Shown here piece by piece: positions 23,499-41,435 of a stretch of DNA of 64,000 bases. A program made the translations under genes and the position numbers. The notes under the pieces are model-generated. The model was not told the origin of the DNA, ran no database searches, and was given only the letters and a program-made list of their open reading frames with translations. Origin of the DNA: an uncultured Rhodocyclaceae bacterium (lineage in GTDB: Bacteria > Pseudomonadota > Gammaproteobacteria > Burkholderiales > Rhodocyclaceae); assembly GCA_907163075.1 (NCBI GenBank), contig CAJQTY010000001.1, forward strand, positions 1,550,001 to 1,614,000, written 5' to 3'. How positions within the stretch are numbered: position 1 is the first letter of the stretch; every line of letters begins with the position of its first letter.

Positions 23499-24374
23499 CG
23501 AAAGCTTTCAGACGGCGTTAGCGACCCAGGCCAGGAATTGCCTGGAAGGTGGAGTGTACGTCGGCACCAGAAAAAACGCTAACCGCAGCGCGACGAGCGC
23601 GGGCGTGGCGAATTGCCAAGGTATCCGCAATTCACCAGTGGCTACAGGCGTGCGCAAATAACCGGCCTGGGGACGCAGTGGCACGCGAACTGTCTGGCGG
23701 CTGCCCCGCTGACCAAGCGCTATCGCGCGCCTGCCAGCGCCGTTGCGCGCAAATCCCCCCAAGCGATGTCGGACTACTCGTCGAAATGGACAAGGCCAAT
23801 GAGGACCTTTGTGGTCGGGCCATGTCCGGAGATCGCCCGTAGCGTTGCGCCAAGCCGCTGACACCGGCCAGACAGGCTCTCCAAATCCGTTCGGCGAAGC
23901 CCCGCAAGGCCATCGCTTCGCTCATCCGCTGACGGAGCGTGCTCATCTCGCTCTCATCTTCCGACCGGGAAACATTCCCAAGGAAAAGGACCGGTGACTG
24001 AGCTCAGGACTTGAACGATCGACAACGAAAAAGCTTCACATCCTCTCGATCGCGGCCGAGTTCGATAAATTATTTAAATTACTGTTGACACATAGCTAGT
24101 AAAGTACAGATAATTTGCTAAATAACGAATTCTGGATTAAATCATTGGAATAGATATATTTACTAATATTTTTCAGGCCTAAACTGCGATAAATAATTTA
24201 CTTTAATAACCATTATAGAGAAGTTTTTTCAGGTTAGAAGAGCGTGTAAGTTCGGTCTTTCGGCAAGGTCTGCAGGCTCAGAAACACGACTCTGGCTATT
24301 TGTTTGGTATCGCGACGATGCTGGCTGACGACGGTATCGCGTTGCTCAATGACGTCAGACTTCGGAGATATGGT
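23499..24374. other. Long intergenic region, no convincing gene; AT-rich from about 24050
   Basis: Bases 23510-24000 have high G+C and overlapping open frames on both strands, but none shows a recognisable domain or a good start; this may be degenerate mobile or coding DNA. From about 24050 to 24250 the sequence turns strongly AT-rich. It carries the promoter/operator at 24077-24114, leaving a leader of about 260 bases before the binding-protein gene. Confidence 0.6.
24077..24114 (+). promoter_or_regulatory. Sigma-70 promoter with an embedded CTTTAC/GTAAAG-type operator (ABC operon 1)
   Basis: AATTAC (24077-24082), two bases, TTGACA (24085-24090), eight bases, GTAAAG (24099-24104), four bases, GATAAT (24109-24114). 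The spacing between all elements is identical to the promoter at 36646-36683, where the left half is CTTTAC. The inverted repeat straddles the -35 box, a classic repressor position. RpiR (39027-39887) is the candidate binder. Confidence 0.6.
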
Positions 24375-25463
24375 ATGCAGATTACAAAATGGACTCATGT
24401 GCGTCGCCATTCACTGGCAATGGCGTTTGCTCTTCTGGGATGCGTGTCGCTAAGCAGTTTTGCGCAAACCCTCAAACCGCTCGACTCAGATCGCGAACCG
24501 GACAGAATCGAATGGTGGCAGGTATCGGAAAAACTTGGCGCGTTACCGAAAGCCAAACCCGGCGTAAAAGTCGGAGCGGTGGCCAAGACACTGACCAATG
24601 AATACTGGCGGCTGTTGGGTGATGGGTACAAGAAGGCCGGTGATAAAGCTGGAGTGACCGTCGACCTTCAGGCGGCGCAAAGTGAAGGTGACCAGCTTGG
24701 ACAGCTAGCCATTGCCGAGAACATGCTCAGCAAGGGCTATTCGGTGCTTCTCGTTTCCCCCCAAAGCGATGCCAATTTGCAACCGGCCGTTGATGCGGCG
24801 GCCAAGGCCAAAGTACCCGTGGTAAACGTTAACGATGCCGTTATTCCGCTGGCCGAACACTATATCGGCAACGTTCAGCGGGACAATGGTGTTCGCGCGG
24901 CACGCTGGTTCGTCCAGAACAAGCCCGCAGGCGGCAAGATTGCAGTGATCGAAGGCATGGCGGGCGTCTATGCCGCCGTGCAGCGCACCGAAGGGTTCAA
25001 GGCCACGCTGGGCAAGGAGTCGACCAAGTTCAAAGTAGTCGCCAGCGTACCGGGTAATTGGGATCGTCAACTGTCCTACGACACGGCGACCAATATCCTC
25101 CAACAAAATCCGGATCTCGTTGGTTTCTACTGCAATAACGACACGATGGCACTCGGTGTTGTCGAAGCCGTCAAGGCCGCAGGTAAGTTGGCGCAAGTGA
25201 CCGTCATTGGTACGGATGGTATCGGTGATGCCTACAAGTCTATCCTGGCGGGCGAACTTACTGGCACGATCGATTCGTTTCCGGTGCTGACAGGTGAAGT
25301 CGCTCTTGATGTGTCCCTGCGTTTGCTGGCCGGACAGAAAGTTCCGCGCGTAGTTGCAACGCCTCAGGCACTGATCACGAAGCAAAACTATTCACGCTAC
25401 AAGGGCGACGAAGCAGCACAACGTAAGGCGCTGATCGAAGACGCAAAATCAGGCGCCAAGTAA
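24375..25463 (+). CDS. Sugar ABC transporter periplasmic binding protein (CUT2 type)
   Basis: The 362-residue product has an N-terminal signal peptide (MQITKWTHVRRHSLAMAFAL, cleavage probably after SSFA). It is followed by a type I periplasmic binding fold of the ribose/xylose class (KTLTNEYWRLLGDGYKKAG, LLVSPQSDANLQPAVDAA, CNNDTMALGVVEA, VIGTDG). The ATG at 24375 has GGAG seven bases before it; an open extension to 24300 lacks one. It is the first gene of binding protein-ATPase-permease-SIS operon 1. The sugar cannot be named. It is distinct from the two Lsr/Rha-like binding proteins elsewhere in the window. Confidence 0.88.
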   Translation: MQITKWTHVRRHSLAMAFALLGCVSLSSFAQTLKPLDSDREPDRIEWWQVSEKLGALPKAKPGVKVGAVAKTLTNEYWRLLGDGYKKAGDKAGVTVDLQAAQSEGDQLGQLAIAENMLSKGYSVLLVSPQSDANLQPAVDAAAKAKVPVVNVNDAVIPLAEHYIGNVQRDNGVRAARWFVQNKPAGGKIAVIEGMAGVYAAVQRTEGFKATLGKESTKFKVVASVPGNWDRQLSYDTATNILQQNPDLVGFYCNNDTMALGVVEAVKAAGKLAQVTVIGTDGIGDAYKSILAGELTGTIDSFPVLTGEVALDVSLRLLAGQKVPRVVATPQALITKQNYSRYKGDEAAQRKALIEDAKSGAK

Positions 25464-25551
25464 GGGCGTTCTCATGTAGCGAATGGCGGGGAGAGCGCTT
25501 GTTCAGCGCCTCCCCGAACGAAAATGCTTCACTGCCTAGAGTGAATATTTG

Positions 25552-27078
25552 ATGCCGAATCCACCTCCTGCCTTGGAGTTGCGAGGTATTAGCAAGCAGT
25601 TCCCAGGCGTAAAAGCTCTGTCGGGCGTGAATCTTCTTGTAAGGCCCGGTGAAATCCACGCCCTTCTTGGTGAGAACGGTGCGGGAAAAAGCACGTTGCT
25701 GAAGATCATCTCCGGCGTACAACAACCGGATGAAGGGGAAATGTTCATCAGCGGCCGCCCCGTGAAACTTGTCGGCACGAAAGCGGCTCGCGCTGCTGGC
25801 ATCGCCATGATTCACCAGGAACTTCAGTTAATCCCTGAACTGAATGCGGCACAAAACATGTTTCTGGGATCGCCTCGCGTGACCTGCGGCGTACTGTTGG
25901 CGCATGACGCAATGCAAAAGCGAGCCAGTGAAGTGCTCCATGATCTGGATCCAGGCATTGACGTACGTACGCCTGTCAAATACCTGAGCGTGGCTCAACG
26001 TCAGATGGTCGAAATAGCACGCGCGCTGCTCACCGATGCGCGTGTGATCGCAATGGACGAGCCCACTTCAAGCCTTACGCCATCAGAGTTCGAGAAACTG
26101 GTGGTATTGATTCGCAAGCTTGCTGAACGTGGCGTGGCAATCATTTACGTTTCCCACAAGCTGGAAGAGGTCTTTGAGCTGTGCGGTCGTGCGACGGTAC
26201 TCAGAGATGGTGTTTGGATCGACGAGTTGCAACTAGCGAATACGACTGAGCCGGAACTGGTGGCAAAAATGGTCGGGCGCGAACTCGTACATAACACTCG
26301 TCATCGTACCGCCGGCGGAGAAATCGTGCTGGAAGCACGGGGACTCCAGTGGAAAAGCCGCGTACGCGGCGTATCGCTGGCCGTTCGTCGTGGAGAGATT
26401 CTTGGCATTGCAGGACTAGTCGGTGCCGGGCGTAGCGAGTTAGTTGGACTGCTTGCCGGGCTGCAACGCCCCGATGCGGGCGAGATATTTGTCCACGGTA
26501 AGGCGCAGCAATTCGCAAACCCTGGGAGTGCAATTCGAGCCGGAATTGCGTTGGTGCCAGAAGAGAGAAAGCGCGAAGGCATCATCCCCTTGATGTCAAT
26601 TCTGTCCAATGTCGGCTTGCCTACACTCAATAAAGCCACGCGGTTTGGATTGATACGCCATGGTGCTCTGAGAGCGCGCGTTCATGCCGACGCCGTGCGT
26701 GTAAACATGCGCCCGTTGGCGTTGTCGCGCCCCATAAGGCTATTTAGCGGTGGTAACCAGCAAAAGGCCATTATCTGCCGTTGGCTAAGTTCTGGGATTG
26801 ACGTTCTGATCTTCGACGAACCGACTCGGGGCATCGATATCGGAGCAAAGGAAGAGATCTACAAGATTATCGAGGAGCTTGCTGCCGAAGGTTGCGCCAT
26901 CATCGTTGTCTCCTCGGAAATGCGGGAAGTGATGTACCTATCAGACCGCCTTTTGGTTATGCAAGGCGGCAAGCTCGCGGGCGAGCTCTCCCATCAACAG
27001 TATTCCGAAGAGGCCATTATGACCCTCGCCATCCCACGTGCCGACATGGCACCCGCTGCATCACAGGAGTTGTCATGA
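25552..27078 (+). CDS. Sugar ABC transporter ATP-binding protein (two ABC domains)
   Basis: The 508-residue product is an RbsA/XylG/MglA-type fused ATPase. Domain 1 has Walker A GENGAGKSTLLK, signature LSVAQRQMVEIARAL and Walker B VIAMDEPTSSL. Domain 2 has a degenerate P-loop (GLVGAGRSELVGLLAG), signature FSGGNQQKAIICRW and Walker B LIFDEPTRGIDIG. The ATG at 25552 lies 88 bases after the binding-protein gene. It powers import with the downstream permease, which its stop overlaps in an ATGA. Confidence 0.92.
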   Translation: MPNPPPALELRGISKQFPGVKALSGVNLLVRPGEIHALLGENGAGKSTLLKIISGVQQPDEGEMFISGRPVKLVGTKAARAAGIAMIHQELQLIPELNAAQNMFLGSPRVTCGVLLAHDAMQKRASEVLHDLDPGIDVRTPVKYLSVAQRQMVEIARALLTDARVIAMDEPTSSLTPSEFEKLVVLIRKLAERGVAIIYVSHKLEEVFELCGRATVLRDGVWIDELQLANTTEPELVAKMVGRELVHNTRHRTAGGEIVLEARGLQWKSRVRGVSLAVRRGEILGIAGLVGAGRSELVGLLAGLQRPDAGEIFVHGKAQQFANPGSAIRAGIALVPEERKREGIIPLMSILSNVGLPTLNKATRFGLIRHGALRARVHADAVRVNMRPLALSRPIRLFSGGNQQKAIICRWLSSGIDVLIFDEPTRGIDIGAKEEIYKIIEELAAEGCAIIVVSSEMREVMYLSDRLLVMQGGKLAGELSHQQYSEEAIMTLAIPRADMAPAASQELS

Positions 27079-28019
27079 CTAACGTTAAGCTTCGTGACCT
27101 GCCGGTTCGCGATATGGGCACCCTTTTTGGCCTCGTGTTGATCTTTGCGACGTTCGCGTTCGTCTCGCCGATATTTATGGAATCCAGAAATCTTGTAAAT
27201 ATCCTGCAGCAAAGCAGCATCAATGCGTGCATCGCCATCGGTATGACATTAATTATCATCTCAGGCGGTATCGATCTTTCGGTTGGACCGGTGGCCGCTT
27301 TGTCAGCCGTTATTTCAGCATCAATGCTTGCAGCAGGAGTACCTCCGTGGATTGGAATGCTAGCAGGCCTGGCTGTCGGCATTTCTTGCGGTGTCGTTAA
27401 TGGTGTATTGATTGCCTACGGCGGCTTGCAACCTTTTATCGTAACCTTAGGAACACTCAGCATCTACAGGGCGCTTGCATTGATTTACACCGGCGGGAAT
27501 CCGGTGCTCAATATTCCTTCGGAATTTCGGTCGTGGTTTGGAAACTCGCTGGCTGGATTGCCAATGCCAGTGATCATCGTTTGCATTGTTAGCGCCCTCG
27601 CATGGGTACTCTTGCGCAAAACACCGATCGGCGAGTACCTTCTTGCTGTTGGCGGAAATGAAGAAGCGGCTCGAATAGCGGGGGTCCCTGTGGCTCTAAC
27701 CAAGGTGACGGCTTACGCCATCAGCGGCGGTCTGGCATCGCTTGCCGCGATGATCGTTGTTGCGCGCCTGGGTGCAGCAGAACCAATTCTCGGCAATCTA
27801 TGGGAATTGGAGGCTATTGCCGCCGCCGCGATTGGAGGAGCATCACTCCTTGGCGGGAAAGGCGGCATCGTAGGTACGCTATTGGGTGCCATCATTCTTG
27901 GCGCAATGCGCAACGGACTGACGCTGCTCAACGTACAGGCTTTCTACCAGCTACTGGCCACCGGGCTCGTCATCTTGTTGGCGATGCTGGTCGATCGATT
28001 GACGCGCGGCCGAGCATGA
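27075..28019 (+). CDS. Sugar ABC transporter permease (CUT2/RbsC type)
   Basis: The 314-residue product has eight to ten hydrophobic helices and the CUT2 landmarks IISGGIDLSVGPVAALSAVI and EAARIAGVPVALTKVTAYAI, which form the cytoplasmic coupling loop. IGGASLLGGKGG follows near the C-terminus. It overlaps the ATPase gene in an ATGA. Only one permease gene is present, so the transporter would be a permease homodimer, as in RbsC. Confidence 0.92.
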   Translation: MTNVKLRDLPVRDMGTLFGLVLIFATFAFVSPIFMESRNLVNILQQSSINACIAIGMTLIIISGGIDLSVGPVAALSAVISASMLAAGVPPWIGMLAGLAVGISCGVVNGVLIAYGGLQPFIVTLGTLSIYRALALIYTGGNPVLNIPSEFRSWFGNSLAGLPMPVIIVCIVSALAWVLLRKTPIGEYLLAVGGNEEAARIAGVPVALTKVTAYAISGGLASLAAMIVVARLGAAEPILGNLWELEAIAAAAIGGASLLGGKGGIVGTLLGAIILGAMRNGLTLLNVQAFYQLLATGLVILLAMLVDRLTRGRA

Positions 28020-30525: not shown

Positions 30526-31602
30526 TTAGTCCGCGCGAACCTCGAATGGAGCTTTGGCTCTTGGCTTTTTTAACTGTGAAACGTTTCGCGAGGTTCTCAG
30601 GTGTTCGGTGAGCCGTTCCTTCAACACGATTCCTCCCGAGGCAATAATCAGGATCGCGCCCCACATGGCTAGCGTAATGAACTGGCTCAGATCCAGCAGG
30701 ATCGAAGCCGTTGACAATATCTGCAGGATAATCAAGGAGAGGATCACACCACTCACCTTGCCGAATCCGCCCAGCGGATTGACCCCGCCTAGCACCGCCG
30801 CCAGAATCGCAACCAGCAAATAGCTTTCGCCGTAGGCGGCATTGGCCGAGTCGAACCGTGCCATCATGATTACGCCCGCGATGGCTGACAGCAGTGCGGC
30901 AAGCAAATACACCCACATCACGCTACGACGAGTGTCGATCCCGGAATACTGGGTTGCACGTTCGTTTGATCCAATCATGGCAATGGCACTGCCAAGCGGC
31001 GTGTGCTTGATGAATATGCTCAATGGAATCACGACAAGAAAGAATACGATCAACGCAACTGGAACGCCGAAGACGCTTCCATGGCCGATGAACACAACGG
31101 GTTCTGGAAAACCAGAAATGACATCGCCGTGGCTAAAGCCGATCGACAGGCCTTTGACCGCAGTCATCGTGCCAAGGGTAGCGAGCATCGGAGGAACACG
31201 CAGGTAGGCGATCAGGAAGCCGTTAGTCAATCCGACAATTGCTGCCATCAGCAAACCCACCATCAAGGCGCCGACCTGAAACAACCCCCAGGCCACACCG
31301 TGAGTCTCTGGCAGCCAGGACGTAAACATGTACGCCATGATGAGTGCACAGAAGTTCGCCGTGGCGATAATCGACAGATCGATCCCACCGGAAAGCATCG
31401 GGATCATCATCGCCAGTGCCAGAAACCCCAGCTCGGGTAGCTGAAAGGCCATCGACCGCAGTCCCGCAACGCCAAACAACTTATCGCCTTCCATAAAACC
31501 AAGAACGACGATCATCAACCCCAGCATGACAAGAAGACGCAGGTTCGTCGCGCCAATCGCGCTGCGTAGATCAGCCACAAGGCTAGCCCTTGCCTTCTTC
31601 AT
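30526..31602 (-). CDS. Sugar ABC transporter permease 2 (LsrD/RhaQ-like)
   Basis: The 358-residue product has about ten hydrophobic helices. The CUT2 permease landmarks LSGGIDLSIIATANFCALIM and IGSNERATQYSGIDTRR are present, followed by LGGVNPLGGFGKVSG. Its closest relative in this window is the permease at 56294-57376. It is the last gene of operon 2 (binding protein-ATPase-permease-permease), overlaps the previous permease by four bases, and is followed by a terminator. Two different permeases per transporter are typical of Lsr (AI-2) and rhamnose importers. Confidence 0.9.
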   Translation of the reverse strand: MKKARASLVADLRSAIGATNLRLLVMLGLMIVVLGFMEGDKLFGVAGLRSMAFQLPELGFLALAMMIPMLSGGIDLSIIATANFCALIMAYMFTSWLPETHGVAWGLFQVGALMVGLLMAAIVGLTNGFLIAYLRVPPMLATLGTMTAVKGLSIGFSHGDVISGFPEPVVFIGHGSVFGVPVALIVFFLVVIPLSIFIKHTPLGSAIAMIGSNERATQYSGIDTRRSVMWVYLLAALLSAIAGVIMMARFDSANAAYGESYLLVAILAAVLGGVNPLGGFGKVSGVILSLIILQILSTASILLDLSQFITLAMWGAILIIASGGIVLKERLTEHLRTSRNVSQLKKPRAKAPFEVRAD

Positions 31603-32600
31603 GATGTAACTCCTTGTACAACCAACTTGTGGCGCTTCTTGGTTTCCATTGCCATCATGACGACGGCGGCGATAATGACGAGTCCGGTGTTGAAGAGTGA
31701 CCAGTACGAGGAAACGCCGAGCAGAATCAATCCATTTTGAAGGATGGCGATCAGGGCGAGTCCCAGTATCGTTCCCATCACCGTGCCCGACCCGCCATTA
31801 AGACTGGCGCCACCGATCACGACCGCTGCAACCACATCCAGCTCGCGCCCGACGAGTGCTGTTGGTGATACAGACTGTACGAGTTGTGCCTGCACCAGAG
31901 ACGCGACGCCAGCCAATGCGCCCATATAGCCATAGACAAGCAGATTGAGTCTGACCACATTGAAACCCACGCGCTGTGCCGCATCCGGATTGCCGCCAAA
32001 TGCATAAATCTGGCGGCCAATATTGCTGCGGTTGAGCAGCAGCCAGGTCACAAGGAATGCTGCGAACAAGGCGATAATCTGGAAATTGATGGCTAGCGAC
32101 GCGCCCTGTGCGTCGGTATGGAATACCAGTTCAAAGCCGGCGTTGAACCAGTCAGGCAAGGAGAATATGTCCGCACCTCGCGTGACCGTGAGCAATACCC
32201 CGTAGAAGACATTCAGTGTCGCAATCGTGACGATCAGAGCCGAAGTCCTCAGGGTGTTCATCAGCACCCCGTTGATGAGTCCGAGTACGACACCGAGACT
32301 GATTGAGATCGCGAAAATCCCGGTCCAGCCAATGCCAAAATGGTTGGCCACGGTCAACGCGGTGTATTGCGCAATTGAAGCCGTCGCAGCAAACGACAGG
32401 TCAATCCCCCCCGTGATAATGACGACAAGAAGACCTGCGGACATAATCCCGATGAACGCATTGGCACTAAGGACGTCTACCAGGTTTTGCAGGGAAGCAA
32501 ATTCCGGCGTAAAGACGGCCAATAGCCCGGCCATCACGATGATTACCAACAGTAATCGGAATTCATGTGTGCGTGTGAAGCGCTTGATTACCTCATGCAT
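31599..32600 (-). CDS. Sugar ABC transporter permease 1 (LsrC/RhaP-like)
   Basis: The 333-residue product has multiple membrane helices with IITGGIDLSFAATASIAQY, FGGNPDAAQRVGFNVVRLNL and VIGGASLNGGSGTVMG, the CUT2 permease landmarks. It is paralogous to the permease at 55305-56291. It overlaps the ATPase gene by eight bases and the second permease by four, so the three are tightly coupled. The transported sugar is unknown. Confidence 0.91.
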   Translation of the reverse strand: MHEVIKRFTRTHEFRLLLVIIVMAGLLAVFTPEFASLQNLVDVLSANAFIGIMSAGLLVVIITGGIDLSFAATASIAQYTALTVANHFGIGWTGIFAISISLGVVLGLINGVLMNTLRTSALIVTIATLNVFYGVLLTVTRGADIFSLPDWFNAGFELVFHTDAQGASLAINFQIIALFAAFLVTWLLLNRSNIGRQIYAFGGNPDAAQRVGFNVVRLNLLVYGYMGALAGVASLVQAQLVQSVSPTALVGRELDVVAAVVIGGASLNGGSGTVMGTILGLALIAILQNGLILLGVSSYWSLFNTGLVIIAAVVMMAMETKKRHKLVVQGVTS

Positions 32601-34077
32601 TGACGGCCTCTTTCAGTTCGTCTTCCGAGCAACGTCCCGGTACGAATTCACCGGTCAGCCGACCAGAGCGCATCACCAGTACGCGATGGCTGTGGTAGTA
32701 GACTTCGGGGATTTCATCGGAAATCATGATGACCGCAATCCCCCGCGCAGCGAGATTTCTCACGACTTCGTAGATACCGTCCTTGGCGCTGATATCAACA
32801 CCAACGGTTGGGCTGTCGAGAATGAGGAGTTTGGGGTTGATCGCCAACCATTTCGCAAGGACCACCCGCTGTTGATTGCCACCGGATAGGGTCTTTACCT
32901 TGTTTTCGGGGTTCCCCGCCTTGATGGTAAGTTCGTTGATTCCATGGCTGACGGTCGAATCGAACAAATCATTACGTATCAGGCCGGCTTTGTTAACGAG
33001 CTTCTCGATCACTGACATCGTGATGTTCGAGGCAATGGATTGTTCCAGCACGAGTCCAAGTGAAAGCCTGTCTTCGGAAAGGTAGGCAATCCCGAGGTCA
33101 ATGGCATCGCGGTTAGAGCGCATTTTAGCGACCTGCCCGTTCACCCGGATTTCCCCGCGATCCGGGGGAGCCATTCCAAAAAGAGAAAGGGCAAGCTCGG
33201 TTCGTCCCGATCCTAACAGCCCCGTAATGCCAAGAATCTCGCCACGCCGGACGTCGAAGTGAATATCCTCATAGTCACCTTCGCGTGAGAGTCCTCGCAC
33301 ATCAATCACTGTCTCGGTGTCGGGTCGATCCTGTGCTACGCACTCGTAGTTGAATTCCTTGCCGGTCATCAAGGTGGCGAGTTTTCGATCGGACATATCT
33401 TTTGCACTGTAGGTGCCCAACTTCACACCGTCGCGCATGACCGTCACCCGATCGGCGATTTCAAGCACCTCATCAAGGCGATGGCTGACAAACACAATCG
33501 TGATTCCACGCTTCTTCAGTTCAAGCGTGAGTGAAAGAAGGGCATCGACTTCATGCCGGGTCAAGGAGGATGTCGGTTCATCCATAATCACCAGACGCGC
33601 GTCAGCCGCCATTGCCCGACAGATTGCAACGAGTTGGCGTTGGGCAATAGAAATGTCGGCCACCTTGTCATCAGGCCGCAAAGCGACACCGATACGCTTC
33701 ATTGCCTCATCGGCAACGCGTGCGATTTTTCGCCAATCGACCGCCTTGACCCTTCCTGAATGCAAACCGATCGAGATGTTCTCGGCAACGGTCAGATTCG
33801 GAAACAAGGAGAGATCCTGATAAATGACCTGCACCCCGAGGCGAGTGCTCTCGACCGGAGTCAGGTGGGATACGCGGTGACCATCGATTGTTATCTGGCC
33901 GCCCGGTTCCGGTTGGTGCACTCCTGAAATGACCTTGATGAGCGTGGATTTTCCACACCCATTCTGTCCGCAAAGGCAGTGCACCTCACCTTTTTCGAGT
34001 GTTAGGCTAACGTCCGAAAGCGCATGAACGCCGCCAAATACCTTCGATATACCATCAAGTTGTAAAAAGACTGACAC
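32593..34077 (-). CDS. Sugar ABC transporter ATP-binding protein (two ABC domains)
   Basis: The 494-residue product has domain 1 with Walker A GQNGCGKSTLIK, signature ISIAQRQLVAICRAM and Walker B LVIMDEPTSSL. Domain 2 has P-loop GLLGSGRTELALSLFG, signature LSGGNQQRVVLAKWL and Walker B LLILDSPTVGVD. The second Walker B has Ser where a catalytic Glu is usual, so the second site is probably non-hydrolytic. The paralogue at 53789-55312 shares this change, while the ATPase of operon 1 keeps DEPTRGID. It lies in operon 2, 84 bases downstream of the binding protein. Confidence 0.92.
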   Translation of the reverse strand: MSVFLQLDGISKVFGGVHALSDVSLTLEKGEVHCLCGQNGCGKSTLIKVISGVHQPEPGGQITIDGHRVSHLTPVESTRLGVQVIYQDLSLFPNLTVAENISIGLHSGRVKAVDWRKIARVADEAMKRIGVALRPDDKVADISIAQRQLVAICRAMAADARLVIMDEPTSSLTRHEVDALLSLTLELKKRGITIVFVSHRLDEVLEIADRVTVMRDGVKLGTYSAKDMSDRKLATLMTGKEFNYECVAQDRPDTETVIDVRGLSREGDYEDIHFDVRRGEILGITGLLGSGRTELALSLFGMAPPDRGEIRVNGQVAKMRSNRDAIDLGIAYLSEDRLSLGLVLEQSIASNITMSVIEKLVNKAGLIRNDLFDSTVSHGINELTIKAGNPENKVKTLSGGNQQRVVLAKWLAINPKLLILDSPTVGVDISAKDGIYEVVRNLAARGIAVIMISDEIPEVYYHSHRVLVMRSGRLTGEFVPGRCSEDELKEAVNA

Positions 34078-34161
34078 CGCTACACCCCATTCATTTCCGT
34101 ATTGGGCACGGGCGCTTGACTCAGCGGAGCCAAGCCGCCCAAAGACTTAAAGACCCCGGTC

Positions 34162-35172
34162 TTAGAGTCCGAGCTTGATGAGGTCGTCGATGGTCTTTTT
34201 GTTGATCGCAAGGATACGGTCAACCATGACCACATTGTTTACGCTGTCGATGGTCGCCTTGCCCAGGCCGGGAACGTCCATGCCCGACTCGAACTTGGCC
34301 CCGTCCAAAGCCAAACGCGCGACGGATGTCATCGCCAGACCCGCCTCTTTCGGGCTCCAGAGGAAGCCTTCCCGGATCACGCCGGCCATAATGTGAGCCT
34401 TGGCCTGCGACGGGATCGTTGTGCCGACCAGCGCGATTTTGCCTGCAAGATTCCGCTTCTTGAGCACATTGCCGGCGCCGATCGGACCATTGGAACCCAT
34501 TGACATGATTCCGGTGACGTTCGGGTGGGCCTTCAGGATATCCTGCGTGACACGTTCTGATTCGTCAATAAAGTCGGCGCCGGGAAATCGGTCAGCTGCC
34601 ATCTTCATCTTCGGATAATTGGCTTTCTGGTAGGCAATCGCAGCATCCGCCCACTGATTGTGCCCGGTCGTTGTCAGCGTTCCGACGAGAACGACGTAGT
34701 CGCCCTGTTCGCCCATTTCCCGCGCTAGCGCCTTCATTTGGGTTTCACCGTAGGCTTGGGCGCTCATCAATTCCACATCCCAGGTCTTTCCTTCCTGATT
34801 TGGACCTTCTTGCGTGATGACCATGATTCCAGCATCACGGGCGCGCTTGACCACTTGTGCGGTCACTTTGGTATCGAGAGGCACGAGCCCGATCACGTCA
34901 ACCTTCTTGGCAATCAGGTCTTCGATCAGCTTAACCTGCTGCGCCGGATCAGCCTTGGCTGGACCGGTCATGGATGTCTTCAGGTTGAACCTCTTGCCCC
35001 CCTCTTCCAAGCCTTGATTGAGAATGTTAAACCACGGGACACCGGCTTCTTTCACCACGGTGACCATTACCTTGGGCTCCGCCGCAGAGGCAACGGTTGG
35101 GTAGCCAATGCCGACTGCCGAAGAAATCAGAGCCGAGATGCTAAGTAACTTGAGAAGATTGCGACGATTCAT
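34162..35172 (-). CDS. Sugar ABC transporter periplasmic binding protein (LsrB/RhaS-like)
   Basis: The 336-residue product has a signal peptide (MNRRNLLKLLSISALISSAV, cleavage probably after ASA), then a type I binding fold (VTVVKEAGVPWFNILNQG, DVIGLVPLDTKVTAQVV, AIAYQKANYPKMKM, SNGPIGAGNVL, REGFLWSPKEAG). The ATG at 35172 follows AGGGGGTTTCAAA; the long upstream open extension is not protein-like. It is paralogous to the binding protein at 52581, sharing the PWFN, GPIGAG and REGF-W-P blocks. It is the first gene of minus-strand operon 2. Confidence 0.91.
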   Translation of the reverse strand: MNRRNLLKLLSISALISSAVGIGYPTVASAAEPKVMVTVVKEAGVPWFNILNQGLEEGGKRFNLKTSMTGPAKADPAQQVKLIEDLIAKKVDVIGLVPLDTKVTAQVVKRARDAGIMVITQEGPNQEGKTWDVELMSAQAYGETQMKALAREMGEQGDYVVLVGTLTTTGHNQWADAAIAYQKANYPKMKMAADRFPGADFIDESERVTQDILKAHPNVTGIMSMGSNGPIGAGNVLKKRNLAGKIALVGTTIPSQAKAHIMAGVIREGFLWSPKEAGLAMTSVARLALDGAKFESGMDVPGLGKATIDSVNNVVMVDRILAINKKTIDDLIKLGL

Positions 35173-35432
35173 TTTGAAACCCCCTATTTTCCATTGAAAT
35201 ACCGGCGCATCCGATGTTGTTGAGCAAGTTTCACTTCGGCAGGAGGCGTTGGGCACCGGGTAGATAAACCCCCGCCGCCAACCCATGTTATGACCTTGGC
35301 GAAACAACAACAAGACGCAACAATTTACAGCAAAGAATAAATGGGTGAACGAACGTGATTGATCGCTGGTGCAAGATGCAATTTCTCTGCGTCCGAAACA
35401 ACGGGCACTGCACATTCCTGCTGACAAATAAA

Positions 35433-35460
35433 CTTTACCATAAAAAACCATAAAGTAAAG
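35433..35460 (-). promoter_or_regulatory. CTTTAC-N16-GTAAAG inverted repeat upstream of ABC operon 2
   Basis: CTTTAC (35433-35438) and GTAAAG (35455-35460) are perfect inverted half-sites with the same 16-base spacing as the sites at 24077 and 36646. It lies 260 bases upstream of the binding-protein start, similar to the leader length of operon 1. No equally good -35/-10 pair is embedded here. The rest of 35173-35529 holds no gene. Confidence 0.55.
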
Positions 35461-35529
35461 CTCGTTGTTAAAAAAGATGTTGCTTAACTCCGGGCCGACC
35501 CATGGCGAAGTTTTGTGGACACCCCTTAG

Positions 35530-36615
35530 TTATCGCGAACCGCGAATGACAGACTCCTCGGCGGCCGCCGCCACCGCGCTCAGATAGCCGAGTTTGATTT
35601 TGAAACAGGTGCTTTCGCCGCCAGGCAGTGAACGCACGTTCCCCTTGAGTTTTTCTGAAGAGTACCCTTCGACCCCACACGTTGCGGGCATCGCAAAAGC
35701 GCATACTTTCTGTTTGTTATTGGCCAACACCCACCGCACGAGATGCGAAAAGACGGATGGATCATAGGCAACGACGAAAGCGTCGCCGACTGGTCTGCGC
35801 ATCATGACATGCACCAGACCGTCCTCCGCCGTTCGCAGATTCCTCAGATAGAACACCAGCTCAGGATCGAAACCTGTGGCCGAGTCGATAACTTCGGTGC
35901 CTGAAGGGTCGTCCTTCATCCTGGCGAGGTGCTGCAAATAGTCCTCATTGGCCTGGACGATCGCCGGAACCGAAGTCCTGACGACCGTGTCCGCTTTGGT
36001 AAAGCTTGTTGGCTGGACTATTCGCCCACCCTCCACAAACGCAAAGTTGGCGTGGCACATGTACATCAGATCCATCGTATCTACGGCGCAGTTCTTCACC
36101 TCCATGGAAATTTCAAAGGTCGCATCGTCTGGCCGGATCAGCACTCTCGGGCGAGCAATATAGTGATCGCCGAAACCCATCAGGTATTCGCGCTCGCCGA
36201 CAACTGCCATCCACGGTCCGTCGGCGTCCTCGCCAATTTCTATTCCGGCCTGATCCATCGCGGCCAAGGGCATTTCGCCGTGCAGGGCGTGGCTATCGCT
36301 GGCTCCCGGGTTCCCATTGCGCAACAGACCCGAGTGATACATGAAGCAGCCGTAGGTGCCAACAATGTCAGCGGCTGGGCGCGGTGCCTTGAACATGCTG
36401 GACATGGTGAGATCAACCCCATCGAACATCGCTTGCCAAATCATCTGGCCGTAGTAGGGGAGAACCACGAGATGCCCCCGACGGTTCGTCATCCGAATTG
36501 CTTCGATACCGGACTCGTAAACGAACAATTCGGCACTGCATCCGTCAGTCCGTGCGATCTCTAACGGAGCGCTGCCAAAAAACGATTTCTTAAGTTTGAG
36601 TAGCGTGCGATTCAT
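35530..36615 (-). CDS. DUF4432 family protein (galactose mutarotase-like fold)
   Basis: The 361-residue product looks like a DUF4432/aldose 1-epimerase-like beta-sandwich. It has an LVVLPYYGQMIWQAMFDGVD opening strand pattern, GCFMYHSGLLRNGNP, HALHGEMPLA, an ExKN motif (SMEVKNCAVDTMDLMYMCH) and an acidic C-terminal region. Such proteins accompany sugar-uptake operons and may convert sugar anomers; the activity is not proven. The ATG at 36615 follows AGGAAC; the frame is open to 36702 without a better start. It is divergent from the isomerase gene, and the shared region holds the operator at 36646. Confidence 0.75.
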   Translation of the reverse strand: MNRTLLKLKKSFFGSAPLEIARTDGCSAELFVYESGIEAIRMTNRRGHLVVLPYYGQMIWQAMFDGVDLTMSSMFKAPRPAADIVGTYGCFMYHSGLLRNGNPGASDSHALHGEMPLAAMDQAGIEIGEDADGPWMAVVGEREYLMGFGDHYIARPRVLIRPDDATFEISMEVKNCAVDTMDLMYMCHANFAFVEGGRIVQPTSFTKADTVVRTSVPAIVQANEDYLQHLARMKDDPSGTEVIDSATGFDPELVFYLRNLRTAEDGLVHVMMRRPVGDAFVVAYDPSVFSHLVRWVLANNKQKVCAFAMPATCGVEGYSSEKLKGNVRSLPGGESTCFKIKLGYLSAVAAAAEESVIRGSR

Positions 36616-36645
36616 GACTGTTCCTTTCTGGTTGAATATTTCGTA

Positions 36646-36683
36646 CTTTACTCTTGACATTATAAAAGTAAAGCCGTGATAAT
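36646..36683 (+). promoter_or_regulatory. Sigma-70 promoter with embedded CTTTAC/GTAAAG operator (isomerase-kinase-RpiR unit)
   Basis: CTTTAC (36646-36651), two bases, TTGACA (36654-36659), eight bases, GTAAAG (36668-36673), four bases, GATAAT (36678-36683). The half-sites are perfect inverted repeats and flank the -35 box. The same arrangement, base for base in spacing, occurs at 24077-24114. It lies between the divergent DUF4432 and isomerase genes and can control both. Confidence 0.68.
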
Positions 36684-36720
36684 AAGCGCACGTTATGCAC
36701 AACCAAAAAAGGATCTTTCA

Positions 36721-37701
36721 ATGAAATTCGCTACGCGCCTGAACTCCTTTCGCACTCGTCCAGAGCTTTACTGGAAAGACATGTCTGGGAAACCTACGAA
36801 CGCCCAGTTGCTCCAACGTGTAGCCACGGTCAAAGGCCTTACCCACGTTGATCTCAACTATCCTGATCACATGACGCAGGAGTCGCCGCAGGAAATGAAG
36901 AAGCTGCTGGCTGACCTTGGGCTTGAGCTGAACGGGTTCGCCGTGAGGTACTACAGTGATCCGACTTTCCGTCAGGGTTCCTTTACTCACCCCGACGCCG
37001 CCGTTCGTCGCAAGGCCATCGACATTGCAAAAAAGGGGATTGACACGCTGTTGGAGTGCGGCGGCAGCCTGATGACGTTCTGGCCGGGACAGGACGGATT
37101 CGAGTACCCGTTCCAGTCGGATTACCGTCGCCTTTGGGAACTGCAACTCGAAGGCATTCGACAGATGGCTGAATATAACAAGGACGTCACGATATCGATC
37201 GAATACAAGCCCAACGAACCGCGCACCCATGCCGTTCTCGGCAATGCCGGGATGACGATGCTGGCCATTCGCGAACTGGGATTGGCAAATCTTGGGATGA
37301 CCCTGGATTTCTGTCACGTTCTGTATGCCGGAGAACAGCCCGCCAACATTGCAGCGCTGGTCAGCCACCACTCGCGCCTGGTCGGTGTCCACTTGAACGA
37401 TGGCTATGCCCGCTATGACGACGAATTGGTGACGGGCTCCGTTCACTTCATGCAGACGATCGAATTCCTGCTGCAGCTGAGGAGAGACGGTTACGACGGC
37501 GTCTACTACTTCGACACAATGCCGGACACCGTTGATATTGATCCGGTGGGGGAAACCGAACTCAATATTGAGGTCGTGACCAACATGATGCGGATTGTCG
37601 ACAAGCTTATTGCGACGCCCGAACTCGAACGTGCGGCAGCAGCTCAAGACGCGCTGGCGACCCAACGCATTGTTCAAAATGCAATCTTCGGCGGTCTTTA
37701 G
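36721..37701 (+). CDS. Sugar isomerase/epimerase, TIM-barrel (xylose isomerase-like)
   Basis: The 326-residue product belongs to the AP-endonuclease-2/xylose isomerase-like TIM-barrel superfamily. Likely metal ligands lie in ISIEYKPNEPR (Glu), MTLDFCHVLYAG (Asp, His), VGVHLNDGY (His, Asp) and VYYFDTMPD (Asp), as in L-rhamnose isomerase and ketose 3-epimerase relatives. The exact sugar is unknown. The ATG at 36721 follows AAAAAGGATC. The next genes are a PfkB kinase and an RpiR regulator, so a pathway of isomerisation then phosphorylation is likely. A promoter with an operator lies 38 bases upstream. Confidence 0.82.
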   Translation: MKFATRLNSFRTRPELYWKDMSGKPTNAQLLQRVATVKGLTHVDLNYPDHMTQESPQEMKKLLADLGLELNGFAVRYYSDPTFRQGSFTHPDAAVRRKAIDIAKKGIDTLLECGGSLMTFWPGQDGFEYPFQSDYRRLWELQLEGIRQMAEYNKDVTISIEYKPNEPRTHAVLGNAGMTMLAIRELGLANLGMTLDFCHVLYAGEQPANIAALVSHHSRLVGVHLNDGYARYDDELVTGSVHFMQTIEFLLQLRRDGYDGVYYFDTMPDTVDIDPVGETELNIEVVTNMMRIVDKLIATPELERAAAAQDALATQRIVQNAIFGGL

Positions 37702-37830
37702 ATCTCGGCGTTTCCGGGATTGATGGCCAGACGTCATGCAAGCGTCACAATTGGCGGAACGCCTCGGCCTTGACCCTATCCCGCGCCAGTTCGCGGCATG
37801 AATAATTTGACTGAGGAGCTAATCTCCGAA

Positions 37831-38703
37831 ATGAATACTGTGACTGTATTGGGCAGCCTGCATCTCGATATCGTGGTGAAAGCTCCTCGCCAGCCTCTCC
37901 TGGGCGAAACGTTAATGGGTTCGGGCTGGCATCAGGTCGCCGGAGGCAAGGGCTTGAACCAGGCGGTTGCCTGTGCGCGCGCCGGCCTCGCTACGCGCAT
38001 GCTCGGCCTCGTCGGCGACGACGGATTCGCGGATACGATGATTGCGCACCTGCGCAACAACCAGGTCGATACAACAAACATCATTCATTTGGCCAATAGC
38101 GGCTCCGGCATGAGCGTAGCCATCGTTCAATCGGATGGTGACTACGCCGCTGTCGTTGCCTCGGAAGCGAATGGCCTGCTTGACGGTGAGCGGATAACCG
38201 CCTGGAACGACCTGCTGGAAGGCTCGTCAGCCCTGGTTCTACAAAACGAAATTCCTGCCGAGGCCAATCTCGAAGCGGCCCGTATTGTCGCATTGCATGG
38301 CGGAATAGTCGTAGTGAATGCTGCACCGGCCCGACACACGGACCCGTTGTTGTTTAAGCATGTCGATGTACTCATCGTTAATTCCGTCGAGGCCGAGATG
38401 ATGGGATCGGCCCCAGTGCTTGATTTGCCTTCGGCCCGGGTCGCCAGCCTGTATCTGCACGAACAGTTTGGGTCCGACGTGGTGGTCACTGCGGGCAAGC
38501 ACGGGGCGGCGTGGGCAAGCAAAATGCATGGCTCCGGTTTCGTCCAGGCCGTGCCCGTGAAGGTCATTTCGGCGCACGGTGCCGGAGATACCTTTGTCGG
38601 CCATCTGGTGGCCGAGCTGGTCCGCGGCAACGCGCTCGGCGCGGCGGTAAGCGCTGCCAACGCCGAAGCGGCGCGTTACGTATCGACTGTGCATACCGTA
38701 TAG
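37831..38703 (+). CDS. PfkB-family carbohydrate kinase (ribokinase-like)
   Basis: The 290-residue product has N-terminal GSLHLDIVVKAP, the sugar-binding GGKGLNQAVACARAG and the C-terminal ATP site AHGAGDTFVGHL with the catalytic Asp. The length is normal for ribokinases. An ATG at 37798 is in frame, but the GAGGAG lies between the two ATGs, 12 bases before 37831, which favours the latter. The enzyme would phosphorylate the product of the upstream isomerase. Downstream, 38704-39026 (323 bases) holds a short hairpin (GCCAGG/CCTGGC, 38705-38727) and no gene. Confidence 0.87.
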   Translation: MNTVTVLGSLHLDIVVKAPRQPLLGETLMGSGWHQVAGGKGLNQAVACARAGLATRMLGLVGDDGFADTMIAHLRNNQVDTTNIIHLANSGSGMSVAIVQSDGDYAAVVASEANGLLDGERITAWNDLLEGSSALVLQNEIPAEANLEAARIVALHGGIVVVNAAPARHTDPLLFKHVDVLIVNSVEAEMMGSAPVLDLPSARVASLYLHEQFGSDVVVTAGKHGAAWASKMHGSGFVQAVPVKVISAHGAGDTFVGHLVAELVRGNALGAAVSAANAEAARYVSTVHTV

Positions 38704-39026
38704 AGCCAGGCGCACCCACGTCCTGGCGCCCGGCCCATGGGTACATGCAGCATCGGACGCGGATTCCAAAGCCATGCGGGATTGAATGCCTGGCAGGAGA
38801 ATCGGCGTCCACTCCTGTCATTTGCCAGATCTCCGGTCAAGCGGAAAACCACCTCTTCGACCCCATGACGCTGGCGATAAATCCGAGGATCCAGGGGCAT
38901 ATCGCTAAGCCGCCGTCCTGGAAGACGTGCGTTTAGTATCCTCCATGATTTGAGTTAATGGCACAGCTCTTACGAGCATGCTATGTTTATGCATTCTCGA
39001 ATACCCTGGAAGGGATAAGGCGTTTC
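38704..39026. other. Gap between the PfkB kinase and RpiR genes
   Basis: No coding sequence is supported. A six-base-pair hairpin (38705-38727) without a T-run follows the kinase stop. The base composition changes to a more mixed pattern, which might be degenerate sequence. No CTTTAC/GTAAAG site is found here, so RpiR is probably expressed by readthrough or from an unrecognised promoter. Confidence 0.4.
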
Positions 39027-39887
39027 ATGGTCACGACCGTAGATGATGCAAGCTCCATTGGCCCGCGCTTGCGCATGATGGTTTCAGTGCTTACGCCACT
39101 GGAAGCTCGTTTGGTGGGTGCTGTTCTTTCAAACGGTTTCGACGAGCACATCGCGTTGAGGGATGTGGCCACTGCCTGTGAAATGTCCGAAGCCATGGTT
39201 GTAAAGACCGCCAAGAAACTTGGTTTTTCCGGATTTCGCGATCTGCGCCGCCAAGCGGCTGCATACAACCGTCTCCCCATCACGGAGATGCACCAGGAAC
39301 TCTCCCCGAACGACACGCTTCGGGAGATCGTCACCAAAGTCTTCCGCACGTCTGCGCAGGCGCTGGAGGAAACCCTCGGAATTCTCGATATGGTCGCTTT
39401 CGAACGGGCGGCGGAGTTGCTGGCCAAGGCAAAGCAACGTGATTTTTATGGATTTGGTGGATCGGCACAGATTGCTTGTGATGCCGTCCACAAATTTCTC
39501 CGAATCGGCGTACGGGCAACGGCATACAACGATCCTCACATGATGTTGATGTCGGCGGCGCTACTCGGTCCGGAAGACGTCGTTCTCGCGATTTCGCATT
39601 CGGGCCAGACAGCAAACGTGATTGAGGCGGTTAAAGCCGCCCAGGTCAACACTGTGCCTGTGATCGCCATCACCAACTATTCTGAATCGCCGTTGGCAAC
39701 CCTGGCCGATGTCGTTCTGTGTTCGACGGCACGCGGATCGCCGCTAACCGGGGAAAATGCGGCCGCTCGTGTGGCACAACTCAATATTCTGGATGCCTTG
39801 TTCGTGGCCGTTGCGCAGCGCGATTACGCACACGCCGAACTTCAGCTGAATCGTACGATGATGGCGGTCGCGCACAAGCGCAAATGA
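39027..39887 (+). CDS. RpiR-family transcriptional regulator (HTH + SIS)
   Basis: The 286-residue product has an N-terminal RpiR-type helix-turn-helix (about 5-80, with IALRDVATACEMSEAMVVKT and KKLGFSGFRDLRRQAA) and a C-terminal SIS domain (about 105-250, with FYGFGGSAQIACDAVHKFLR and LAISHSGQTANVIEAV) that senses a phosphosugar. The ATG at 39027 follows TAAGGCG; an in-frame upstream ATG at 38958 lacks a good site. It is the likely repressor acting at the CTTTAC-N16-GTAAAG sites found at three promoters of this locus. The ligand is presumably the phosphorylated product of the pathway. Confidence 0.88.
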   Translation: MVTTVDDASSIGPRLRMMVSVLTPLEARLVGAVLSNGFDEHIALRDVATACEMSEAMVVKTAKKLGFSGFRDLRRQAAAYNRLPITEMHQELSPNDTLREIVTKVFRTSAQALEETLGILDMVAFERAAELLAKAKQRDFYGFGGSAQIACDAVHKFLRIGVRATAYNDPHMMLMSAALLGPEDVVLAISHSGQTANVIEAVKAAQVNTVPVIAITNYSESPLATLADVVLCSTARGSPLTGENAAARVAQLNILDALFVAVAQRDYAHAELQLNRTMMAVAHKRK

Positions 39888-40398
39888 TCGGCAAGGCCGC
39901 TGGAGCAAAACCGTTCCTCAGGTGACAGCCAAGCGCGGACCAGAACCTGACCGCTGCTTCAACCGACAAATTGTCGCGCATTCTGCTATGAGCGAGGGGT
40001 TGCGAGGGTTCGCCAGCCTTGGCACTTAGTGAGTGCCGGGATGGTGACGCAACGAGTTCGGACTTACGCATTCGATCAGGAAATTGACGCCACTCGCCTG
40101 TCCTCGTACCGCCATCCCCGTTGGTCATTGCCAGCTACCACGGGGCAACGGAATTTCGAATCAGCTGAGCGGCGAGTGCAACGGACCTGTTTCCTATAGG
40201 GATGAACCTGCACCGCATCGCCAGTAGCACGGATGGTAGTGAAAGCCGCGCGCCGTCCTTGGCAATTGATGGGCGACAAACTAACCTTACGGGTGTATAG
40301 CCAAGGCCTGCACTTACTCTTAGCGCCAACGGTATCGAAAATCAGGCTTTCACAATCGACAGCTGTTGGCACGGACCGCTCACTTACGAGGAATTACC
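39888..40398. other. Intergenic region without a recognisable gene
   Basis: This gap of about 510 bases has several short open frames, none with a convincing start or domain. It marks the end of the lower-G+C sugar block; the sequence from about 40400 onward has the higher G+C of the flanks. Confidence 0.45.
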
Positions 40399-41181
40399 AT
40401 GAATCAGACCAAACCAATCCTGGTGCAAGACAAACCGCTGGGCGGTGGAGTAATGCCGGCCATCATCACGCCGCTGGTTGGAAAAACGCAGGCCGCGATC
40501 CTTGATGAAGTCGCGGCAATCATTCCCAAAAAACCTGACCTGCTTGAGTGGCGAGTTGATTTCTTCGCCGACATCGGCGATGCCCAGGCCGTGGTCGCAA
40601 CCGCGCAGGCCATCCGCCAGGCGGCCGGCGGTGTTCCCGTGCTGCTCACGCGGCGCAACGTGAGCGAAGGCGGCGAAAAAATTTCGATCGCCGAACCGGC
40701 GGTGGTGGCGATGTACGCCGCGGCCTGTCAGGCCCGTTGTGTGGAACTGATCGACTACGAACTCTCCAACGACGCCGACGATTTGCATCGGCTACGCGAA
40801 GTTTCTGCGGCCAACGGCATTTCGATGATCATGTCCTACCACAACTTCCAGATGACGCCGGATGCGGCCACGCTGGACAGCAAGTTTGCCGCCGCCGAGC
40901 GCCTCGGTGCCGATGTCGCCAAGGTGGCGGTAATGCCGCAGAATGCCCAGGACGTGCTGGCGCTGCTCGCGGCGACCGATCGTGCGCGGCAGACGATCGG
41001 ACTGCCGCTGATCAGCATGTCGATGGGCGGTATCGGTTCGCTGTCGCGGATCGTCGGCTGGGTCTACGGCTCGGCCGCCACTTTCGCCGTCGGCAAGAGC
41101 AGTTCCGCGCCAGGGCAGATTGCCATCGAGGAACTGCGCTCGGTTCTCGGGATCATGCGCAAGGCGGTCAACGGAGGCTGA
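40399..41181 (+). CDS. aroD: Type I 3-dehydroquinate dehydratase
   Basis: The 260-residue product is a type I (Schiff-base) dehydroquinase: Glu-Arg in LLEWRVDFF, catalytic His in IMSYHNF, catalytic Lys in ADVAKVAVMPQ and the C-terminal GKSSSAPGQI substrate loop. The ATG at 40399 follows GAGGAA. It acts on 3-dehydroquinate in shikimate synthesis or quinate catabolism. Most betaproteobacteria use the type II enzyme AroQ for biosynthesis, so an isolated type I gene beside sugar-catabolic genes may serve a catabolic route; that is inference. Confidence 0.9.
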   Translation: MNQTKPILVQDKPLGGGVMPAIITPLVGKTQAAILDEVAAIIPKKPDLLEWRVDFFADIGDAQAVVATAQAIRQAAGGVPVLLTRRNVSEGGEKISIAEPAVVAMYAAACQARCVELIDYELSNDADDLHRLREVSAANGISMIMSYHNFQMTPDAATLDSKFAAAERLGADVAKVAVMPQNAQDVLALLAATDRARQTIGLPLISMSMGGIGSLSRIVGWVYGSAATFAVGKSSSAPGQIAIEELRSVLGIMRKAVNGG

Positions 41182-41435
41182 CGCCGGGCCGGAGTTCGAC
41201 GAACAGCCGGGGCGGTGTCGGCGACTACCCGACCGAGCAGTTCGTGCATGTCGATACCGGCCGCATCCGCCGCTGGTAGCCGCCGGACGGGCGGCAAAAC
41301 GATGACTCGTCATCATCGTGTTCCAGAATGACCGCCTGCTGGCTACGCCAAAAATAGTTGCCAGAAAGCCCTGGCGCTCCGGAACAAGTAATCCAATGTT
41401 GAACTCTTATGGCTTTACACCCCGAGGAGAACAAC

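What the first reader, a model, noticed from the sequence alone, without database searches (positions are those of the whole stretch)
36646..36683. Two promoters with identical operator-promoter geometry define a candidate RpiR regulon
At 24077-24114 and 36646-36683 the order half-site, 2 bases, TTGACA, 8 bases, GTAAAG, 4 bases, GATAAT is repeated with identical spacing, although the spacer bases differ. The half-sites (CTTTAC or AATTAC, and GTAAAG) are conserved while the sequence between is not, which is what a protein-binding constraint looks like. One promoter drives an ABC importer, the other an isomerase-kinase unit that leads to the RpiR gene. The inference is that RpiR represses both and itself.
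Basis: partly seen in the sequence, partly recalled or inferred. Interest (0 to 1): 0.75.

Follow-up and report, generated by a model that had tools for sequence, protein, structure and literature searches.

The report
Conserved operator of a sugar repressor
Two promoters in this genome carry the same widely spaced two-part DNA sequence; a third copy was missed, and the same sequence stands before the matching sugar-uptake genes of other bacteria, so it is very probably where the neighbouring sugar-sensing regulator binds.

Summary
In relatives the genes form one operon, isomerase-importer-rpiR-kinase; 15 of 18 plasmid operons have the motif before the isomerase with at most 2 mismatches, and 16 is a clear peak among spacings 4-30. 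Gammaproteobacterial operons keep the half-sites but mix spacings 16 and 8; E. coli-type AlsR has 15. Best reading: a 28-bp operator with half-sites two helical turns apart, bound by the RpiR at 39027-39887 and overlapping the promoter. Not supported: the -35 offset of the two reported promoters is not seen in relatives, and the gap before rpiR has no operator, so self-repression could come only by read-through. Binding, sign of control and the sugar are untested. A 28-bp operator is known for RccR of the same family (PMC5489143, passages), so this is a new member of a known kind.

The parts
24077..24104 (+). Operator O1 (AATTAC-N16-GTAAAG) before the D-allose-binding-protein-like importer; -35 TTGACA 24085-24090, -10 GATAAT 24109-24114
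24196..24223 (+). Candidate auxiliary operator (ATTTAC-N16-GAGAAG), 119 bp downstream of O1
   Evidence: third-best full-matrix score in the window; 1 of 2000 shuffles of the region; conservation not shown
24375..25463 (+). Periplasmic sugar-binding protein 1 (D-allose/ribose-binding-protein-like)
   Evidence: Pfam Peripla_BP_4; AlsB model 187 bits, below its 335 cutoff; 68% to an Agrobacterium orthologue
25549..27078 (+). Sugar ABC importer ATPase 1
   Evidence: Pfam ABC_tran; orthologues
26892..28019 (+). Sugar ABC importer permease 1 (ORF limits; true start probably near 27072)
   Evidence: 75% to Sinorhizobium chiapasense orthologue
30526..32600 (-). Two permeases of the second importer
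   Evidence: 73% and 79% to Erwinia persicina
32593..34077 (-). ATPase of the second importer
   Evidence: 79% to Erwinia persicina
34162..35172 (-). Sugar-binding protein of the second importer (RhaS-like; start chosen by eye)
   Evidence: TIGR02637 134.7 bits, below its 342 cutoff; 85% to Erwinia persicina
35323..35350 (-). Weak candidate auxiliary operator (GTTCAC-N16-GTAAAT on the - strand), 110 bp downstream of O2
   Evidence: fourth by full matrix but ninth by half-sites alone
35433..35460 (.).
   Evidence: same place in Erwinia persicina L016 4993 and G546 L084 8035
35530..36615 (-). DUF4432 gene, divergent from the isomerase
   Evidence: PF14486; 70% to Erwinia persicina
36646..36673 (.). 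Operator O3, exact CTTTAC-N16-GTAAAG, in the divergent isomerase/DUF4432 gap; -35 TTGACA 36654-36659, -10 GATAAT 36678-36683
   Evidence: orthologous sites
36721..37701 (+). Xylose-isomerase-like TIM-barrel protein, presumed sugar isomerase
   Evidence: PF01261; nearest solved chain 3ktc
37798..38703 (+). PfkB (ribokinase-like) sugar kinase
   Evidence: PF00294
39027..39887 (+). RpiR-family regulator (HTH_6 plus SIS), proposed to bind O1-O3
   Evidence: PF01418 and PF01380; PRK11337 425 bits, above its 378 cutoff

Best explanation
CTTTAC-N16-GTAAAG (in general ACTTYAC-N16-GTRAAGT) is the operator of the RpiR-family regulator encoded at 39027-39887. Two DNA-binding domains of a dimer or tetramer contact two hexamers 22 bp apart, about two helical turns, on one face of the DNA. 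In two of the three promoters the operator covers the -35 hexamer and ends just before the -10, so bound RpiR would block RNA polymerase. A sugar phosphate made in the pathway, bound by the SIS domain, would change this. Three promoters share the operator: O1 (allose-binding-protein-like importer), O2 (second, RhaS-like importer) and O3 (isomerase-kinase and perhaps the divergent DUF4432 gene). Shown: sequence, rarity, conservation with the operon, spacing preference. Inferred: binding by this RpiR, repression, ligand, oligomer.
For: Two exact sites in 5.2 Mb, both in the cluster. Same motif before the isomerase in 15 of 18 plasmid loci with at most 2 mismatches. Spacing peak: 17 hits at g = 16 in 15 of 20 loci, 0 to 6 hits at every other g from 4 to 30; everted control 1. 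Whole records: 11 of 17 have exact CTTYAC-N16-GTRAAG, 16 places against 3 in the reversed control; 15 of the 16 lie at these operons. A full matrix from 16 non-window sites puts O2, O3, 24196, 35323 and O1 as its five best of the window. Two genomes with an RpiR 84% and 76% identical have the second-importer site in the same place. Recognition-helix motif S[ED]AM[VI]VK in 12 of 12 RpiR proteins aligned, SEAM in 11. AlsR orthologues: best gap N15 in 20 of 21, N16 in 1. Four distant isomerase homologues outside this operon have no such site upstream (best 4.5; training sites 18.2-26.6).
Against: No binding or expression data. O1 has a diverged left half (AATTAC), and no orthologous promoter was seen, since most relatives have one joined operon. 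No operator before rpiR. Mesorhizobium, Methylobacterium, Aureimonas, Pantoea, Vibrio and Duffyella records have no exact CTTYAC-N16-GTRAAG (6 of 17). In the gammaproteobacterial isomerase operons the N16 partner is diverged (GTAAAG in 2 of 12) and an N8 pair scores higher in 8 of 15 loci, N16 in 7 including one tie; so for that branch the 16-base spacing is not exclusive. One of the four negative-control loci (L067) has a SIS-domain protein gene next door, so it is not a clean negative.
Confidence: 0.87

Rival explanations
1. The sites bind RpiR, but RpiR acts as an activator, or its ligand strengthens binding to these 28-bp sites, as reported for RccR with KDPG.
For: RccR binds its 28-bp sites more tightly with KDPG (PMC5489143, passages); pneumococcal NanR is an RpiR-type activator (PMC12713135, passages).
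Against: The operator overlaps the -35 and spacer in O1 and O3, a position usual for repression; E. coli AlsR is annotated as a repressor.
Confidence: 0.2
2. The sites belong to another transcription factor, not the local RpiR.
For: Binding was not tested; LysR, GntR, LacI or TetR genes occur near some orthologous operons.
Against: rpiR is the one regulator gene inside the annotated operons; the half-site follows the RpiR clade as far as E. coli AlsR; four distant isomerase homologues in other contexts lack it.
Confidence: 0.08
3. The two-promoter match is chance agreement of AT-rich promoters with good sigma-70 hexamers.
For: With up to 2 mismatches the motif is no commoner than its reversed control; 24077 is imperfect; promoter-like sites in 35250-40100 are no more than in shuffles (2 against a mean of 2.6).
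Against: Shuffles, spacing profiles and conservation.
Confidence: 0.03

Closest known systems
RccR of Pseudomonas (RpiR family), 28-bp pseudo-palindrome TGTAGT/ACTACA (PMC5489143, passages seen)
   Same: RpiR family; hexamer half-sites in a 28-bp operator, that is N16 by my arithmetic; carbon metabolism
   Different: Other half-site; RccR also uses a 15-bp site with the same arms; targets are central carbon genes; its ligand raises affinity for the 28-bp sites
E. coli AlsR/RpiR of the als operon and rpiB (record; PMC8249747, passages seen)
   Same: 44% identical regulator; same half-site ACTTYAC/GTRAAGT predicted near both ends of the alsR-rpiB gap
   Different: Spacing N15 in nearly all; genes are allose kinase, epimerase and RpiB, not this isomerase and PfkB kinase; window RpiR falls below the AlsR model cutoff
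HexR (RpiR family), TTGT-N7-8-ACAA (as cited in PMC5489143, passages)
   Same: RpiR family repressor of sugar catabolism
   Different: Short compact palindrome
Pneumococcal NanR (RpiR family), 18-bp near-palindrome (PMC12713135, preprint, passages seen)
   Same: RpiR family; dimer-tetramer behaviour; sugar phosphate ligand
   Different: Activator; compact site, with a degenerate extra half-site proposed 23 bp downstream

Membership tests
RpiR/MurR-family regulators | N-terminal HTH_6 domain | tested here: met
   PF01418 45.3 bits, cutoff 28.3
RpiR/MurR-family regulators | C-terminal SIS (sugar isomerase) domain | tested here: met
   PF01380 78.9 bits, cutoff 25
RpiR/MurR-family regulators | Binds an operator at the genes it controls | not testable with these tools
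   Only sequence conservation was shown
AlsR equivalog (NF040776) | Score above the model cutoff | tested here: not met
   311.7 bits against 400
AlsR equivalog (NF040776) | Same operator as AlsR orthologues | tested here: inconclusive
   Same half-site, but best gap N15 in 20 of 21 AlsR loci and N16 here
D-allose utilisation system | D-allose-binding protein above model cutoff | tested here: not met
   NF007254 187 bits against 335; still its best model; best solved matches include allose-binding proteins
D-allose utilisation system | Growth on or induction by D-allose | not testable with these tools
   None
RccR-type 28-bp RpiR operators | Two hexamers with a 16-base linker | tested here: met
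RccR-type 28-bp RpiR operators | Half-site TGTAGT/ACTACA | tested here: not met
   Half-site here is CTTYAC/GTRAAG

The most novel reading that the evidence does not exclude
A widely gapped operator built of ACTTYAC/GTRAAGT half-sites is the ancestral mark of a whole AlsR-like RpiR clade in alpha-, beta- and gammaproteobacteria, with the spacing (16, 15, or 16 with 8) drifting by branch. Because the half-site is shared, one regulator can take over importers of unrelated families: an ugpC-type importer in rhizobia and a RhaS-like importer here and in Erwinia. In this genome a single RpiR runs two sugar modules with different closest relatives, while Erwinia persicina keeps two RpiR paralogues facing similar operators.
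Probability: 0.4. Interest if true: 0.55.

Novelty: new member of a known kind. Interest (0 to 1): 0.42.

Why it matters
It turns a two-promoter resemblance into a predicted regulon whose operator is found before the same genes on more than a dozen alphaproteobacterial plasmids, and gives a directly testable operator for E. coli AlsR, for which my nine literature searches showed no described site. It also offers a case for how operator spacing (16, 15, 8) and a shared half-site let a regulator gain new transporters.

Tried and rejected
Further regulon members in the same genome: nothing convincing. C1:1318337 lies in a nusB-like ORF, C2:365649 in a 663-aa ORF, C1:2149809 in a thioredoxin-like ORF, C1:765915 overlaps the end of a cytochrome-like ORF; gene names by eye. 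Of the 11 places of TTYAC-N16-GTRAA outside the cluster I looked at these last 3; 8 were not looked at.

Identical promoter geometry as a conserved trait was rejected. An operator in the kinase-rpiR gap was sought and not found. N16 in the E. coli alsR-rpiB gap was not found (best 1.5); N15 was (23.3). Duplication of one promoter to make the other was rejected: bases between the hexamers agree at 2 of 14 positions (my count).

One search scored AlsR loci with 6 of 21 in the wrong orientation; those numbers are discarded and one search replaces them. In that set L091 and the Duffyella plasmid L035 are the same sequence. Acidisoma W08:155781 is an exact match inside a 351-aa ORF and is counted as a miss. 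In one search, L037 (no annotation) and L043 (upstream beyond the record's start) were left out; L037 was seen. L040 and L042 have no annotation either; there the start of the protein match was used. L042, L043 and L044 were not searched as whole records. That W13's site is before the isomerase is inferred from its distance to rpiR.

The sugar could not be settled: allose, allulose and ribose-like sugars remain open. Structure prediction was not used.

Full report
WHAT IS THERE. Both reported sites are present as described. The cluster holds a sugar importer (24375-28019), a second importer on the other strand (30526-35172), a DUF4432 gene (35530-36615), a xylose-isomerase-like protein (36721-37701), a PfkB kinase (37798-38703) and an RpiR-family regulator (39027-39887). 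The regulator passes the PRK11337 model (425 bits, cutoff 378) but not the AlsR equivalog (312, cutoff 400).

A THIRD SITE. The exact palindrome CTTTAC-N16-GTAAAG is at two places in the genome: 36646-36673 and 35433-35460. The second was not in the finding. It lies between the end of DUF4432 and the start of the second importer's binding protein. TTAC-N16-GTAAAG has four places, three of them O1, O2 and O3. TTYAC-N16-GTRAA has 14 places against 5 for the reversed control, three of them in the cluster, one being a weaker candidate at 35323. CTTYAC-N16-GTRAAG with up to one mismatch gives 34 against 19; CTTTAC-N16-GTAAAG with up to two gives 74 against 117, so loose matching carries little or no signal.

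IS IT MORE THAN CHANCE. In the window, TTYAC-N(g)-GTRAA for g = 4-39 gives three hits at g = 16, one at g = 8 and none at other spacings. A half-site matrix made from 16 sites of other species was run on 2000 dinucleotide shuffles of each promoter region: 1 reaches O1, 0 O2, 0 O3. A full matrix from the same 16 sites ranks 35433, 36646, 24196, 35323 and 24077 as the five best of the window; with half-sites alone the order is 35433, 36646, 24077, 24196, then 35483, and 35323 is ninth.

THE SAME OPERON ELSEWHERE. The RpiR has relatives in 110 of 72,556 plasmid records at E 1e-40 or better. I fetched 20 loci by RpiR or isomerase matches. In the annotated ones the order is isomerase, binding protein, ATPase, permease, rpiR, kinase, save Mesorhizobium L030 (isomerase, rpiR, kinase, with an importer on the other strand). 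In this window the same genes are split over two promoters. In the 300 bases before the isomerase, 15 of 18 loci have the motif with at most 2 mismatches; L033, L034 and L041 have 3. TTYAC-N16-GTRAA is found 17 times in 15 of the 20 loci; other spacings from 4 to 30 give 0 to 6. Over all gaps from 4 to 30 the best pair is N16 in 16 of 16 alphaproteobacterial loci, which are also the training loci. In 17 whole records exact CTTYAC-N16-GTRAAG is in 11, at 16 places (control 3): 11 before the isomerase (W13 by position only), 1 before the binding-protein gene in Paracoccus, 3 between an RbsD/FucU-like gene and an ugpC-type importer (annotated, by eye), and 1 inside an unrelated ORF.

SECOND-IMPORTER MODULE. 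Erwinia persicina (two strains, L016 and L017) has an RpiR 84% identical and the same second importer; its site ATTTAC-N16-GTAAAG is in the same place, with further sites before DUF4432 and the isomerase. A second genome, G546, with a 76% identical RpiR, has ATTTAC-N16-GTAAAT there. Erwinia also has a second RpiR, 52% identical, in its own isomerase operon. Among ten loci compared, the window's first-module proteins are nearest to rhizobial ones (46-75%), the second-module ones and RpiR to Erwinia (70-85%). A tree puts window, Erwinia and G546 regulators together (100/100) and nearer to most alphaproteobacterial ones than to the other gammaproteobacterial ones, at modest support (84/88) and with a warning about long branches; the window isomerase is not placed with support. 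The isomerase was found in 1 of 399 genomes of the window's order at E 1e-60, the window's own, so the cluster is probably acquired.

GAMMAPROTEOBACTERIA AND ALSR. In 295 genomes of Erwinia's family, 13 have a relative at E 1e-80. Of the 13 first-module regulators I fetched the operon start of 12. All 12 have ACTTYAC-like left half-sites 66-71 bases before the isomerase and an N16 pair with score 16.4 or more, but the N16 partner is GTAAAG in only 2 of 12, usually GGAAAG or GAAAAG, and an N8 pair scores higher in 8 of 15 gammaproteobacterial loci (12 plus L033, L034, L035), N16 in 7, one a tie. The typical sequence is AACTTCAC-N8-GTGAAG-N2-GGAAAG-TACATYAC. So the half-site is kept there, the spacing is mixed. 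L033 and L034 score low (11.3, 12.8). E. coli AlsR is 44% identical. Its alsR-rpiB gap has CATCAC-N15-GTGAAG, reached by 0 of 1000 shuffles over gaps 10-22. In 21 genomes with AlsR (of 295) the best pair has N15 in 20 and N16 in 1; pairs of score 15 or more are found with N15 in 20 loci, N16 in 8, N18 in 1, N23 in 2, and none in the coding control. These genomes are related and not independent.

HOW IT WORKS. Half-sites 22 bp apart lie on about one face of the DNA. In O1 and O3 TTGACA lies inside the operator and GATAAT 4 bases after it, so RpiR there would exclude RNA polymerase. O2 has no TTGACA. The ligand is presumably a sugar phosphate (family knowledge; SIS domain). Autoregulation is built in where rpiR is inside the operon, but here rpiR stands 323 bp beyond the kinase without an operator; the scan of 35250-40100 found no promoter-like or terminator-like site in that gap, though its counts are no higher than in shuffles, so read-through is possible but not shown.

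COMPARISON AND NOVELTY. RccR has a 28-bp pseudo-palindrome besides a 15-bp one (PMC5489143, passages), HexR and NanR compact sites. Wide and double spacing is thus known in the family; the half-site, the regulon and its spread are what I found no description of in nine searches of an open-access library, seen as listings, with passages from four papers. Curated motif databases such as RegPrecise or RhizoBindingSites could not be searched and may hold it.

Noticed in passing
window 28220-28699: 6-phospho-3-hexuloisomerase-like (HxlB) SIS protein right after the first importer, 131.5 bits against a cutoff of 160; not annotated in the operons of the relatives that I fetched.
   Followed up: no
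window 28779-29822 (-): D-2-hydroxyacid dehydrogenase gene between the two importers, on the second importer's strand.
   Followed up: no
window 40366-41181: Type I 3-dehydroquinate dehydratase (aroD) just beyond rpiR.
   Followed up: no
window 42667-45591: By eye from the ORF list: a 974-aa protein with WD40-like repeats and a caspase-like C-terminal part, beside an OmpA-like lipoprotein gene (41409-42638).
   Followed up: no
window 24077/24196 and 35433/35323: Both importer promoters have a main operator and a weaker candidate 119 or 110 bp downstream; could be looping or chance.
   Followed up: partly
L085-L096 upstream of the isomerase: Gammaproteobacterial operons carry an array of about four half-sites (CTTCAC-N8-GTGAAG-N2-GGAAAG-TACATYAC); N8 and N16 pairs compete for best score.
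   Followed up: partly
L016 with L064 (Erwinia persicina): Two RpiR paralogues, 84% and 52% identical to the window's, facing similar operators in one locus: possible cross-talk.
   Followed up: partly
L041 15779-18969: Aureimonas plasmid has a DUF4432 relative (51% identical) and importer permeases next to the first-module operon, another two-module cluster.
   Followed up: no
L043: The operon sits on a Vibrio plasmid near Tn3 and IS26 transposases and a predicted tet(A) gene; described only.
   Followed up: no
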